DNA of 64,000 nucleotides, from the NCBI RefSeq assembly GCF_001514065.1, contig NZ_KQ948422.1, positions 1,339,939 through 1,403,938 of the forward strand, written 5' to 3'. How positions within the stretch are numbered: the stretch's first letter is position 1; the number at the start of each line of letters is the position of its first letter. The stretch comes from Streptomyces antibioticus (lineage in GTDB: Bacteria > Actinomycetota > Actinomycetes > Streptomycetales > Streptomycetaceae). The notes below the pieces were generated by a model. The model was not told the DNA's origin and searched no databases. It saw nothing but the letters and a program-made list of their open reading frames with translations. The position numbers were made by a program, and so were the translations under genes. Below are positions 54,061 through 58,232 of this stretch, one piece after another.

Positions 54061-54078
54061 GGGATGGCCTCCGGGTGA

Positions 54079-54106
54079 GGATTTCTTGTAAAGGCGTCAA
54101 GAATCC
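54079..54106. promoter_or_regulatory. Inverted repeat in the divergent region of the isopentenyltransferase locus
   Basis: GGATTTCTTG (54079-54088) and CAAGAATCC (54098-54106) form a 9-bp arm with one extra T and a 9-nt spacer, 19-46 bp upstream of the transketolase-like gene. The whole 54061-54316 interval is AT-richer than its surroundings and carries further GGATC/GGATTC motifs (about 54125, 54142). Confidence 0.45.
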
Positions 54107-54316
54107 GTTAGGAAACGACTCGACGGATCCTCATAGGGTTCTGGATTCCCTTCGTCCGGGCCATTCACCCGGCCTAATTCAACCTTTAACAAGCCCACAG
54201 GAATGTGGCTTTCTCTTTGCCCGGTCCAGATGTCTGCCTGGTTCTTCGCCGTCTCCTTTCGCGCTTAGGTGGACGCCGACTCTCCCCGCAGACGGAGTGG
54301 AAGGGGACATCCCGTC

Positions 54317-55087: not shown

Positions 55088-56409
55088 ATACGATCCGCAC
55101 GGACCGGGCATTCGCCGCGCACGATTTCGGCCACATCGTCGAGTCCCGGCCGCTCGACGTCCTTTCGCCGCGCTCCGGTTCCGAGGTCCAGGGCCTGGTC
55201 GCCTTCGCGGACCGGCACCGGCTGCCGGTCACGGCCCGCGGCCGCGGACTCGCCCCGTTCGGGCAGGGCCAGGCCGACGGCGGTTACGTCGTCGACATGG
55301 GCGCCCTGAACGAAGTGCGCTGCGTGCCGGGCGAGCGGACGCTGGTCGCCGGGGCGGGCGCGACCTGGGGTGACGTCGTGCGCACCGCGCTGGCCGCAGG
55401 CCTCGTACCCCCCGTCCTGCCCGACCATCTCGGCGCCAGCGTCGGCGGGGTGCTCAGCACCGGCGGCTTCGGCGCCTCCAGTCACCGGTGCGGGCTCGTC
55501 GCCGACTGGGTACGGGAGGTGGAGGTGGTCACCGGCACCGGTGAGCGGCTCGTCTGCTCGGCCGAACGGCACCCGGACCTCTTCCGGGCGGTCCTGGCGG
55601 GGCTCGGCCAGTGCGCGCTGATCCTGCGGGCCGTGCTGCGTCTGGTGCCCGCGCCCGAGCGGGTCCGGCGCTACCGGCTCTACCACGACGATCCCGGCCC
55701 GTACTTCGCCGACCAGCGGCGTATCGCACGCGACAGCCGGTTCACCCATGTCGAGGGCCGGGCCCGCCCGGCCCTCGGCGGCGGCTGGCGCTACATGATC
55801 GAAGCGGTCGCCCCGCACGACGGCGAACTCCCCTGTGCCGACGACCTGTTGATCGGCGACCTCGGCCACGACCGGGACACCCAGGAGATCGAGGATCTGT
55901 CGTACGCCGAGTACCTCCACCGCCTGGACCGCGACGAACGGCTGCTGCGCGCCACCGGCGAGTGGGACCGCCCGCACCCGTGGCTCGGCCTGCTGCTCCC
56001 CGAGGAGGTGGCCGCAGCCTACGTCCCGGGTGCCCTCACCGAGCCCGCGCAGCAGGGGCTGCGCACCTGCGGCGTGGTGCAGCTGCGCCCGCTGAACGGC
56101 CGTACACTGCGCGCGCCGATGCTGCGCAGGCCGGCCGGTGAACTCCTGTGCCTGCTCTCCGTGATGCGCACCGCGCCGCCCGCGGCCCCGGACACGGTCC
56201 GCCGCATGGTCGCCGCCAATCGCGCACTGTACGAGCGGGCCCGAGCCGTCGGCGGGGTCCTGCACCCCATGAGCGCGCTGGCGATGAGGCCCGAGGACTG
56301 GCGCGGCCACTTCGGCCCCGGCTGGGCGGACCTCGTGCACGCCAAGGAGCGCTACGACCCGCACGCCATCCTGACCAGGGGGTACGGGCTGTGGGCGGGA
56401 GTGCGGTGA
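55084..56409 (+). CDS. Cytokinin dehydrogenase-like FAD-dependent oxidoreductase lacking the flavin-linking His
   Basis: A 441-residue VAO/PCMH-fold flavoprotein. The order of motifs follows cytokinin oxidases: ARGRG near residue 51, VLPDHLGASVGGVLSTGGFGASSHRCG near 115 (keeping the catalytic-type Asp), LFRAVLAGLGQCALILRAVL near 165, FTHVEG near 217 and the C-terminal HFGPGWADLVHAKERYDPHAILTRGYGLW. In plant CKX the His of GRGHS holds FAD covalently. Here that position is Leu56 (GRGLAPFGQG), so FAD is probably non-covalent. GGAGAG is 6 nt before the ATG. Translationally coupled to the isopentenyltransferase, so it likely acts on the same N6-prenyl adenine or modifies it. Confidence 0.82.
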   Translation: MNTIRTDRAFAAHDFGHIVESRPLDVLSPRSGSEVQGLVAFADRHRLPVTARGRGLAPFGQGQADGGYVVDMGALNEVRCVPGERTLVAGAGATWGDVVRTALAAGLVPPVLPDHLGASVGGVLSTGGFGASSHRCGLVADWVREVEVVTGTGERLVCSAERHPDLFRAVLAGLGQCALILRAVLRLVPAPERVRRYRLYHDDPGPYFADQRRIARDSRFTHVEGRARPALGGGWRYMIEAVAPHDGELPCADDLLIGDLGHDRDTQEIEDLSYAEYLHRLDRDERLLRATGEWDRPHPWLGLLLPEEVAAAYVPGALTEPAQQGLRTCGVVQLRPLNGRTLRAPMLRRPAGELLCLLSVMRTAPPAAPDTVRRMVAANRALYERARAVGGVLHPMSALAMRPEDWRGHFGPGWADLVHAKERYDPHAILTRGYGLWAGVR

Positions 56410-56477
56410 CCGTCCGGCCGTCCTGGGCGCGGCGGCCGACGTAGCCTGAATGCTCCGCCCGACTCCGAGGGAGCGCC

Positions 56478-58232
56478 GTGAGCATCGCAGAGCCCGAACA
56501 GGCCACGCCCACCTGGCGGTTGCTGCTGGGATACGTCCGGCCGCATCGGTGGGCGCTGCTGCTGGGCGCCGTGCTCTCGCTGGTGACGGGGGCCACCGGA
56601 CTGTTGCTGCCGCTCGTGGCAAGGGAGTTGATCGACGACCTGTCCCACGACCGCACCGTCACGGGCGCGTTGCTCGTGATGTCGGCCCTGGTGGTGGGCA
56701 ACGCGGCGCTGGGGGCGCTGGGTTCGTACGTGTTGCGCCGGACCGCCGAGTCGGTGGTGCTGGGCGCGCGGCGCGCTCTGTCGTCGTACTTGCTGCGCCT
56801 GCGCATCACGGCCGTGGACCGCACCGAGCCCGGCGACCTGATGGCGCGCATCACCTCGGACACGACGCTGCTGCGCGAGGTCACCACCGACTCCCTCGTC
56901 GGCCTCGGCACGGGCGGGCTGACGCTCGTCGCCACGATCGTGATGATGGGCCTGGTGGATCCTGTCCTGTTGGGCGTCACGCTGGCCGTCATCGCCGCCG
57001 CGGGCACGGTCCTCGGCGTGATCGTGCCGCGCATCAACCGGGCCAGCCGGCAGGCGCAGGACGCGGTCGGGGTGATGGGCGCCTCGCTGGAGCGGATCCT
57101 CGGCGCGCTGCGCACGGTGAAGGCGTCGGGCGCGGAGCACCGGGAGGAGCGCACGCTGCACGAGGCCGCCGAGGAGTCCTGGCGGCAGAGCGTGCGCGCC
57201 GCCAAGTGGTCGGCGGCGGCGGGCAATACGGCCGGACTCGCGATGCAGATCGCGTTCATCACGGTGCTCGCGGTCGGCGGGGCCCGGGTGGCGACCGACG
57301 CGATCGACGTGGGCACGCTGGTGGCGTTCCTGCTGTACGTCTTCTATCTGATGTCCCCGATCCAGCAGGTCGTCGGCGCGATCACGCAGTACCAGACGGG
57401 TGCCGCCGCCCTGGCCCGTATCCAGGAGGCGCTGCGACTGCCCGCCGAACCGGCCGACCTGCCCGCCCCGTTGCCCGCGCCGGGCGCGGAACCGGCCACG
57501 CTGGCCTTCACGGACGTCCGCTTCCGCTACGCCGACGACCTGCCGTACGTCCACCACGGCGTGACGTTCTCGGTGCCGGCCCAGGGCATGACGGCGTTCG
57601 TCGGCCCGTCCGGCGCCGGCAAGACCACGGTGTTCTCACTGATCGAGCGCTTCTACGACCCCGAGTCGGGCACCATCACCCTGGACGGCCGCGACCTCGC
57701 CGACTGGCCGCTGCCGCAACTGCGTTCGGCGATCGGGTACGTCGAGCAGGACGCGCCCGTCCTGTCGGGCTCGCTGCGGGACAACCTGCTGCTGGGCAAC
57801 CCGGAGGCGACCGAGGACGCCCTGACCCGCGTGCTGAAGACGACCCGGCTGGACGGTCTGGTGGCCCGGCTGCCCCGCGGCCTGGACACACTGGTGGGAC
57901 ACCGCGGCACCAAGCTCTCCGGCGGCGAACGCCAACGCGTCGCCATCGCCCGCGCGTTGCTCCGCCGCCCCCGTCTGCTGCTCCTGGACGAGGCGACCTC
58001 GCAGCTGGACGCGGTCAACGAGGCGGCGCTGCGTGACACGGTCGCGGACGTGGCCCGTACGACCACCGTCCTCGTCGTCGCACACCGGCTGTCGACGGTC
58101 ACCATGGCCGACCGGATCGTGGTGATGGACGCGGGCCGGGTGCGCGCGATGGGCACGCACCGCGAACTCGTGGCGTCCGATCCGCTGTACGCGGAGCTGG
58201 CGGCGACCCAGTTCCTGGCCACGGCGGGGTGA
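56478..58232 (+). CDS. ABC transporter half-molecule, exporter type (TMD-NBD)
   Basis: A 584-residue type IV ABC exporter. The six-helix membrane domain covers ~1-320 (RITSDTTLLREVTTDSL loop). The nucleotide-binding domain has Walker A GPSGAGKTT (~380), signature LSGGERQR (~483), Walker B LLLLDEATSQLD and H-loop AHRLS. A homodimer is expected because no partner is adjacent. GTG with GAGGGAG upstream. It starts 68 bp after the cytokinin-dehydrogenase-like gene on the same strand, so it could export a product of that pair. That is positional inference only. Confidence 0.92.
   Translation: MSIAEPEQATPTWRLLLGYVRPHRWALLLGAVLSLVTGATGLLLPLVARELIDDLSHDRTVTGALLVMSALVVGNAALGALGSYVLRRTAESVVLGARRALSSYLLRLRITAVDRTEPGDLMARITSDTTLLREVTTDSLVGLGTGGLTLVATIVMMGLVDPVLLGVTLAVIAAAGTVLGVIVPRINRASRQAQDAVGVMGASLERILGALRTVKASGAEHREERTLHEAAEESWRQSVRAAKWSAAAGNTAGLAMQIAFITVLAVGGARVATDAIDVGTLVAFLLYVFYLMSPIQQVVGAITQYQTGAAALARIQEALRLPAEPADLPAPLPAPGAEPATLAFTDVRFRYADDLPYVHHGVTFSVPAQGMTAFVGPSGAGKTTVFSLIERFYDPESGTITLDGRDLADWPLPQLRSAIGYVEQDAPVLSGSLRDNLLLGNPEATEDALTRVLKTTRLDGLVARLPRGLDTLVGHRGTKLSGGERQRVAIARALLRRPRLLLLDEATSQLDAVNEAALRDTVADVARTTTVLVVAHRLSTVTMADRIVVMDAGRVRAMGTHRELVASDPLYAELAATQFLATAG

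What the first reader, a model, noticed from the sequence alone, without database searches (positions are those of the whole stretch)
54061..58232. Cytokinin-type prenyltransferase coupled to a cytokinin-dehydrogenase-like enzyme in a Streptomyces-like genome
The 256-residue tmr/FasD-type isopentenyltransferase and the CKX-like flavoprotein overlap by 4 bp, so synthesis and oxidation (or modification) of a prenyl-adenine look coupled. In Rhodococcus fascians fasD and fasE are adjacent in the same order. Here no P450 (FasA), LOG (FasF) or methyltransferase (MTR) homologue is visible. An ABC exporter follows in the same direction and a transketolase-like gene lies divergent. This could be a minimal cytokinin or novel prenylated-nucleotide signalling system.
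Basis: partly seen in the sequence, partly recalled or inferred. Interest (0 to 1): 0.82.

Follow-up and report, generated by a model that had tools for sequence, protein, structure and literature searches.

The report
Reduced cytokinin-type gene cassette in Streptomyces
A soil bacterium carries a worn-down chromosomal relative of the gene set that leafy-gall bacteria use to make plant cytokinin hormones; its hormone-releasing gene was cut out of the set, but a related gene sits elsewhere in the genome.

Summary
In detail: an intact adenylate-type isopentenyltransferase (IPT, PF01745, 180 bits; not MiaA) overlaps by 4 bp a cytokinin-dehydrogenase-like flavoprotein. The "minimal system" reading does not. 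The pair is a reduced fas-like cassette, found in 26 further named loci (25 titled Streptomyces). (1) The "transketolase-like" gene belongs to it: an amputated FasC homologue. (2) Relatives carry a LOG phosphoribohydrolase fused to an acyltransferase after the flavoprotein gene (intact in 17 of 26); the window lost it by a 1,450-bp deletion relative to S. justiciae. (3) A second LOG-acyltransferase gene (70% identical) lies about 444 kb away, so the pathway may still be complete. (4) The ABC exporter is a flanking gene. (5) The flavoprotein keeps the catalytic Asp, but the FAD-linking His is Leu (lost in 24 of 28 clade members) and the Tyr beside the Asp is His (28 of 28): non-covalent FAD, a changed reaction or inactivity is predicted. 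At 80 ABC loci without an adjacent intact cassette, 47 sites are empty and 12 hold relics: repeated loss at one place. A new variant of a known kind; no activity was tested, and decay of the whole cassette is a serious rival.

The parts
54317..55087 (+). adenylate-type isopentenyltransferase (FasD/Tzs/Tmr-like), 256 aa
   Evidence: PF01745 180.5 bits; 40% to FasD; Thr10, Asp33 and His214 equivalents of Tzs kept (residue roles recalled)
55084..56409 (+). cytokinin-dehydrogenase-like flavoprotein (FasE homologue), 441 aa; catalytic Asp kept, FAD-linking His replaced by Leu, adjacent Tyr by His
   Evidence: PF01565+PF09265; 39% to FasE; motif table; fold
53479..54060 (-). amputated transketolase C-subunit homologue (FasC-like), 193 aa; no TK-N partner and no GIREQ stretch
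   Evidence: 43% to FasC residues 93-260; alignment with full-length forms; PF02780 only 18.3 bits, below its cut-off of 25.9; no NCBIfam match
54095..54114 (.). conserved block 1 of the divergent promoter region
   Evidence: found with at most 4 mismatches in 18 of 27 window-type loci (alignment)
54184..54227 (.). conserved block 2 (TTTAACAAGC ... CTCTTTGCCCGGTCC), 88-91 bp from block 1
   Evidence: both blocks with that spacing in 16 of 27 loci; no Rfam match
56413..56417 (.). deletion junction: most of the LOG-acyltransferase gene present here in S. justiciae (1,450 bp, L042 about 10102-11551) is absent
   Evidence: blastn blocks end and resume at window 56414/56416 and L042 10101/11552; gene at L042 10078-11583
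56478..58232 (+). ABC transporter: flanking gene, not part of the cassette
   Evidence: present in 125 of 392 genus genomes, 13 of which have IPT; dN/dS 0.075 against S. justiciae
52302..53387 (-). S-(hydroxymethyl)mycothiol dehydrogenase (MscR): the other flank of the site
   Evidence: TIGR03451 702 bits; found beside the ABC gene in 74 of 80 stretches fetched upstream of it

Best explanation
The window holds a reduced form of a chromosomal fas-like cassette of Streptomyces. SHOWN: the genes are homologues of fasC (amputated), fasD and fasE; relatives carry a fasF-type LOG domain fused to an acyltransferase after the CKX-like gene; the window lost that gene by a 1,450-bp deletion; a second LOG-acyltransferase gene lies elsewhere in the same genome. 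INFERRED: the IPT joins a dimethylallyl (or hydroxylated) group to AMP; the LOG domain of the distant gene releases the free prenyl-adenine; the CKX-like protein, with FAD bound without a covalent link, oxidises the prenyl-adenine or a relative of it, and the translational coupling keeps the two in step. The acyltransferase's substrate and the role of the half-transketolase are unknown. The cassette is dispensable and is often lost.
For: IPT family and catalytic residues. Homology to the Fas proteins: IPT-FasD 40%, CKX-FasE 39%, TK remnant-FasC 43%, LOG of S. justiciae-FasF 55%, TK-N and TK-C of L040 to FasB 65% and FasC 55%; pFiD188 gene order. Cassette in 26 named window-type loci, LOG-AT intact in 17 of 26. 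Deletion. LOG-AT elsewhere at G000:C1:949100 with both domains, 78% identical to the cassette copy of G292. Purifying selection, window against S. justiciae: dN/dS IPT 0.40, CKX 0.20, TK remnant 0.39. Of 80 ABC loci without an adjacent intact cassette 47 are empty and 12 hold relics; IPT presence needs 13 changes on the flank tree, 11 of them forced by starred branches. IPT tree: window type is one clade (97*), apart from FasD and the higher-scoring S. turgidiscabies IPT.
Against: No activity, expression or metabolite data. The cassette genes evolve much faster than the flanks (dN/dS 0.2-0.4 against 0.07-0.11), and the window's end branch is about twice that of S. justiciae in the IPT tree (0.12 against 0.055) and the CKX tree (0.063 against 0.024) but not in the flank tree (0.028 against 0.026), which fits weakened use. 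Loss of the FAD-linking His in maize CKX costs structural integrity (PMC8234997, section 5), so the CKX-like protein may be inactive. That the distant LOG-AT serves this IPT is not shown; its neighbours are unrelated.
Confidence: 0.65

Rival explanations
1. The window cassette is a dying remnant: after loss of LOG-AT the IPT and CKX-like genes no longer serve a pathway and will decay, as in many relatives.
For: Relics or partial sets at 12 of 80 ABC loci and in S. guryensis L085; 9 of 26 named window-type loci lack an intact LOG-AT, one of them (L047) because its contig ends. Window end branches about twice those of S. justiciae in the IPT and CKX trees, not in the flank tree.
Against: All three window ORFs are intact; polarised counts show no higher share of non-synonymous change on the window branch (N,S 43,49 against 30,37; p 0.87; few changes, so low power); the promoter blocks are intact; a LOG-AT gene exists elsewhere.
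Confidence: 0.25
2. The cassette makes a Streptomyces-specific modified prenyl-purine (acylated and/or oxidised) rather than a plant-type cytokinin. (Not exclusive with the best explanation.)
For: LOG fused to an acyltransferase with a GYSxG motif in window-type relatives; loss of autoflavinylation residues with the catalytic Asp kept; CKX-like ORF kept at three sites without an intact IPT beside it (L097, L106, L110).
Against: No product known; the acyl donor and acceptor are unknown; the acyltransferase is itself lost in several relatives; the genome of L097 (G315) has two other IPT loci elsewhere.
Confidence: 0.25
3. A plain plant-cytokinin operon (fas operon) as in Rhodococcus fascians.
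For: Same order and overlap of fasD and fasE.
Against: No FasA or TK-N match in the window, FasC amputated and divergent, LOG deleted from the cassette; S. turgidiscabies holds this cassette and, separately, a second IPT (205.9 bits) that groups with FasD.
Confidence: 0.05

Closest known systems
fas operon of Rhodococcus fascians pFiD188 (fasA-F)
   Same: fasC-D-E-F homologues; fasD and fasE overlap by 4 bp
   Different: no FasA and no TK-N (FasB) in the window; FasC amputated and divergent; LOG fused to an acyltransferase in relatives and deleted here; chromosomal, at a mostly fixed site
Streptomyces turgidiscabies fas operon (linked to txt; PMC10711302, passages)
   Same: IPT family
   Different: the higher-scoring IPT of this genome (L173) groups with FasD (97*) outside the window clade; the same genome also has the window-type cassette (L066); that L173 is the published fas IPT is inferred
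IPT-LOG fusions (R. fascians A21d2, PMC4092121, passages; Rhizobacter L076)
   Same: IPT and LOG work as a pair
   Different: fusion partners differ: here LOG is fused to an acyltransferase
Cytokinin dehydrogenases (maize CKX, FasE)
   Same: both domains, catalytic Asp, PHPW and HFG motifs; the top 34 fold matches are CKX
   Different: no GHS His and no Tyr beside the Asp, both implicated in covalent FAD binding (PMC4574047 passages, PMC8234997 section 5)

Membership tests
adenylate isopentenyltransferase (PF01745) | profile match above cut-off and better than MiaA | tested here: met
   180.5 bits (cut-off 20); TIGR00174 28.8 bits (cut-off 148.65); PF01715 not listed at E<=0.01
adenylate isopentenyltransferase (PF01745) | P-loop Thr and general-base Asp (Tzs Thr10, Asp33; roles and numbers recalled) and polar donor pocket | tested here: met
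   T, D and H kept; S and N at the 171 and 173 positions, where FasD has S and A
adenylate isopentenyltransferase (PF01745) | prenylates free AMP | not testable with these tools
   needs an enzyme assay
cytokinin dehydrogenase (CKX) | FAD_binding_4 plus Cytokin-bind domains and CKX fold | tested here: met
cytokinin dehydrogenase (CKX) | catalytic Asp (ZmCKX1 D169, RfCKX D117) | tested here: met
   28 of 28 clade members
cytokinin dehydrogenase (CKX) | GHS His and adjacent Tyr for covalent FAD (H105, Y170 of ZmCKX1) | tested here: not met
   window L and H; clade: His kept in 4 of 28, Tyr in 0 of 28; hence called CKX-like only
cytokinin dehydrogenase (CKX) | oxidises cytokinins | not testable with these tools
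   needs an enzyme assay
fas operon | fasD-fasE order with overlap | tested here: met
fas operon | fasA, fasB and intact fasC | tested here: not met
   no FasA or TK-N match in the window; TK-C amputated
fas operon | fasF (LOG) in the operon | tested here: not met
   deleted here; a LOG-acyltransferase gene elsewhere in the genome
system with its own ABC exporter | exporter present only together with the cassette | tested here: not met
   ABC in 125 of 392 genomes, 13 of them with IPT; empty sites between MscR and ABC; window-type loci L052 and L061 lack the ABC in the stretch fetched

The most novel reading that the evidence does not exclude
A chromosomal Streptomyces lineage of the fas pathway has been rebuilt: a LOG-acyltransferase fusion, a CKX-like enzyme that naturally abandoned covalent flavin while keeping its catalytic Asp, and a half-transketolase under selection together make an acylated or oxidised prenyl-purine used by the bacteria themselves, with the LOG-acyltransferase acting from a distant place in this strain.
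Probability: 0.22. Interest if true: 0.75.

Novelty: new variant of a known kind. Interest (0 to 1): 0.5.

Why it matters
It separates a chromosomal, repeatedly lost cytokinin-type cassette from the mobile fas operon known from gall-forming bacteria. It offers a natural series of CKX homologues in which the residues for covalent flavin have changed (the Tyr beside the Asp in 28 of 28, the linking His in 24 of 28), which makes the role of the covalent flavin testable. It also brings up a LOG-acyltransferase fusion; in the listings of four literature searches I saw no paper whose title or abstract start described it.

Tried and rejected
MiaA-type tRNA prenyltransferase: rejected by profiles. ABC exporter as part of the system: rejected. 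'LOG-AT is lost from the organism': my own interim conclusion, overturned. Relaxed selection after loss of the cassette LOG-AT: the polarised counts do not show it (low power), but the longer window branches in the IPT and CKX trees point that way; left open. On rechecking, these branch lengths, first left out, made me lower the best explanation from 0.68 to 0.65 and raise the decay rival from 0.22 to 0.25. Structure of the half-transketolase: mean pLDDT 50.7, unusable; no fold search was made with it. The TK remnant has no convincing solved-structure match (best E 0.038). RNA element in the divergent promoter: no Rfam match. TK pair as electron supply for a P450: not settled; in my gene calls for L039 and L040 (the same places as L071 and L074) I recognised no P450, but those neighbours were not run through a family search. 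Names and roles of Tzs active-site residues are recalled; the alignment to 2ze5 is.
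Full report
OBSERVATION. The first is an adenylate-type IPT: PF01745 at 180.5 bits, MiaA far below its cut-off, PF01715 not listed, best solved structure the isopentenyl transferase 2ze5. The second has the FAD and the cytokinin-binding domains of CKX, and its model (mean pLDDT 76.6, pTM 0.80, with low confidence in loops 56-62 and 113-139) matches CKX structures in the first 34 ranks. The window lies in a 10.1-Mb genome in 29 contigs. That the genus is Streptomyces is inferred from the named relatives.

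DISTRIBUTION. Of 392 genomes of the genus 14, the own one included, hold the IPT at E<=1e-8. A scan of named genomes gave 44 loci, which I sort as 26 of the window type (L042-L066 and L072; 25 titled Streptomyces, one 'Actinobacteria bacterium'), 7 other Streptomyces arrangements (L067-L071, L073, L074), one relic (L085), and 10 loci with IPT and LOG in Micromonospora, Rhizobacter, Lentzea and Nocardia. The named and unnamed sets overlap: several are the same genome. In the IPT tree the 27 window-type rows form one clade (97*), and FasD pairs with the higher-scoring of two IPTs of S. turgidiscabies (97*); long branches make the deeper order unsure.

ANATOMY IN RELATIVES. The order is TK remnant (divergent), IPT, CKX-like, LOG-acyltransferase, and then, in 23 of 26, the ABC gene (L047 ends before it, L052 and L061 lack it there). 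In 20 of 26 both flanking genes lie within the fetched stretch (rows). The LOG-acyltransferase of S. justiciae has PF03641 (144 bits) and PF00698 (179 bits); its acyltransferase half is closest to polyketide-synthase acyltransferases among the 60 of 103 solved matches shown. Of the 26 named window-type loci 17 have it intact (at least 480 aa with both motifs); the 9 others are shortened, split, without the acyltransferase or cut by a contig end (L047). L071 and L074 have a TK-N and a full TK-C subunit; the L074 pair (as L040) is 65% and 55% identical to FasB and FasC. In none of the 26 did TK-N match at E<=1e-8 within the stretch held, and all have a short TK-C ORF of 182-239 aa (start codons chosen by script). 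In the 8 window-type rows aligned with full-length forms the stretch with the GIREQ motif is missing.

THE WINDOW IS A REDUCED FORM. Against S. justiciae (88% identity in the IPT) the DNA aligns at 93% and 95% on the two sides of a 1,450-bp gap that removes nearly the whole LOG-acyltransferase gene. The flank tree puts the two as sisters (100*), so the loss is recent, or at least later than their split. The genome has three LOG-family matches above cut-off elsewhere. One is 79% identical to the LOG part of the lost gene and is a complete LOG-acyltransferase gene at G000:C1:949100-950608, 70% identical over the whole, and 78% identical to the cassette copy of G292. S. justiciae has only its cassette copy at that score. 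In the 295 genomes, 9 had a match, the own one included; the 8 others lie at cassette places, one of them (G182) without IPT. The distant gene has no IPT, CKX or TK beside it; an MFS gene and a gene without a Pfam match are divergent to it, and its surroundings are not those of the G292 cassette. I infer that the distant gene made the cassette copy redundant; this is not shown.

THE FLAVOPROTEIN. In 28 clade members with a full ORF (window, 24 named, 3 from sites without an intact IPT beside it; L057, L060, L074 and L085 fell out by ORF length) the catalytic Asp is kept in 28, the adjacent Tyr is His in 28, the GHS His is Gln 11, Tyr 11, His 4, Leu 2, and the position of the C-terminal Tyr (RfCKX Y393) is His 21, Tyr 5, Leu 2; PHPW is kept in 28 and HFG in 27. 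FasE and L071 keep the His and Tyr. The state of the GHS position needs at least 4 changes on the CKX tree. According to PMC4574047 (passages) the His, the Asp, the Tyr beside it and the C-terminal Tyr may together make the covalent flavin link; PMC8234997 (section 5 read) says that all active CKX have FAD on the GHS His, but also reports, as unpublished, an active cyanobacterial CKX with AHS whose FAD seems not covalently bound. The Nostoc homologue with Tyr for His bound no FAD, but it also lacks the Asp. So the window protein is CKX-like, not filed as CKX, and whether it works is open.

SELECTION AND LOSS. Window against S. justiciae dN/dS: IPT 0.40, CKX 0.20, TK remnant 0.39; flanks ABC 0.075, MscR 0.067, MBL 0.114. 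Polarised changes on the two branches do not differ in kind, yet the window's end branch is about twice as long in the IPT and CKX trees and not in the flank tree. The ABC gene is in 125 of 392 genomes; 11 of these, the own one included, carry the cassette beside it. Of the remaining 114 I fetched the upstream side of the 80 best-scoring; 34 were left out. Two of the 80 (G292, G315) have IPT elsewhere in the genome. MscR is found in 74 of 80; 47 of 80 have less than 1 kb between MscR and ABC and no trace of the cassette; 15 have a longer gap without trace; 6 show neither MscR nor trace; 12 have traces, among them CKX-like genes without an intact IPT beside them (L097 in G315, L106, L110). On a tree of 95 of 113 rows IPT presence needs at least 13 changes, 11 of them forced by starred branches; that tree cannot by itself tell gain from loss, but the relics show that losses happen.

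REGULATION. Two blocks with constant spacing of 88-91 bp lie in the divergent promoter region in 16 of 27 loci, the window among them. No sigma-70-like site was found in 53900-56600 and no Rfam match.

LITERATURE. Seen: passages of PMC4092121, PMC7261884, PMC10711302 and PMC4574047; passages and section 5 of PMC8234997; otherwise search listings. PMC10711302 reports fas genes only in S. turgidiscabies and one sister group; the present cassette also occurs in S. caniscabiei, S. europaeiscabiei and S. ipomoeae and in many species that I do not know as pathogens. PMC7261884 reports that fasE and fasF deletion mutants of R. fascians remain pathogenic, so even there these genes are individually dispensable. 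Nothing here says that the window strain affects plants.

Noticed in passing
window 54095-54114 and 54184-54227: Two conserved non-coding blocks at fixed 88-91 bp spacing in 16 of 27 loci between the TK remnant and IPT; possible operator or promoter.
   Followed up: partly
L178 6503-9377 (G000:C1 about 946000-948900): MFS transporter and a 414-aa protein without Pfam match, divergent to the distant LOG-acyltransferase gene.
   Followed up: partly
L092 9242-10885 (S. clavuligerus plasmid): Transketolase pair whose second subunit is 59% identical to the TK-C of L074, beside a condensation-domain protein, a dioxygenase and an MFS gene, with no IPT annotated in the stretch.
   Followed up: no
L076 7962-9347 (Rhizobacter sp. 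Root1221): IPT-LOG fusion protein of 461 aa, like the one reported in R. fascians A21d2.
   Followed up: partly
L097, L106, L110: CKX-like ORF kept at the cassette site without an intact IPT beside it (the genome of L097 has two IPT loci elsewhere; those of L106 and L110 had none); suggests a function of its own.
   Followed up: partly
L069 and L073: IPT without LOG or CKX match nearby, near ABC-type transporter genes, in two Streptomyces.
   Followed up: no
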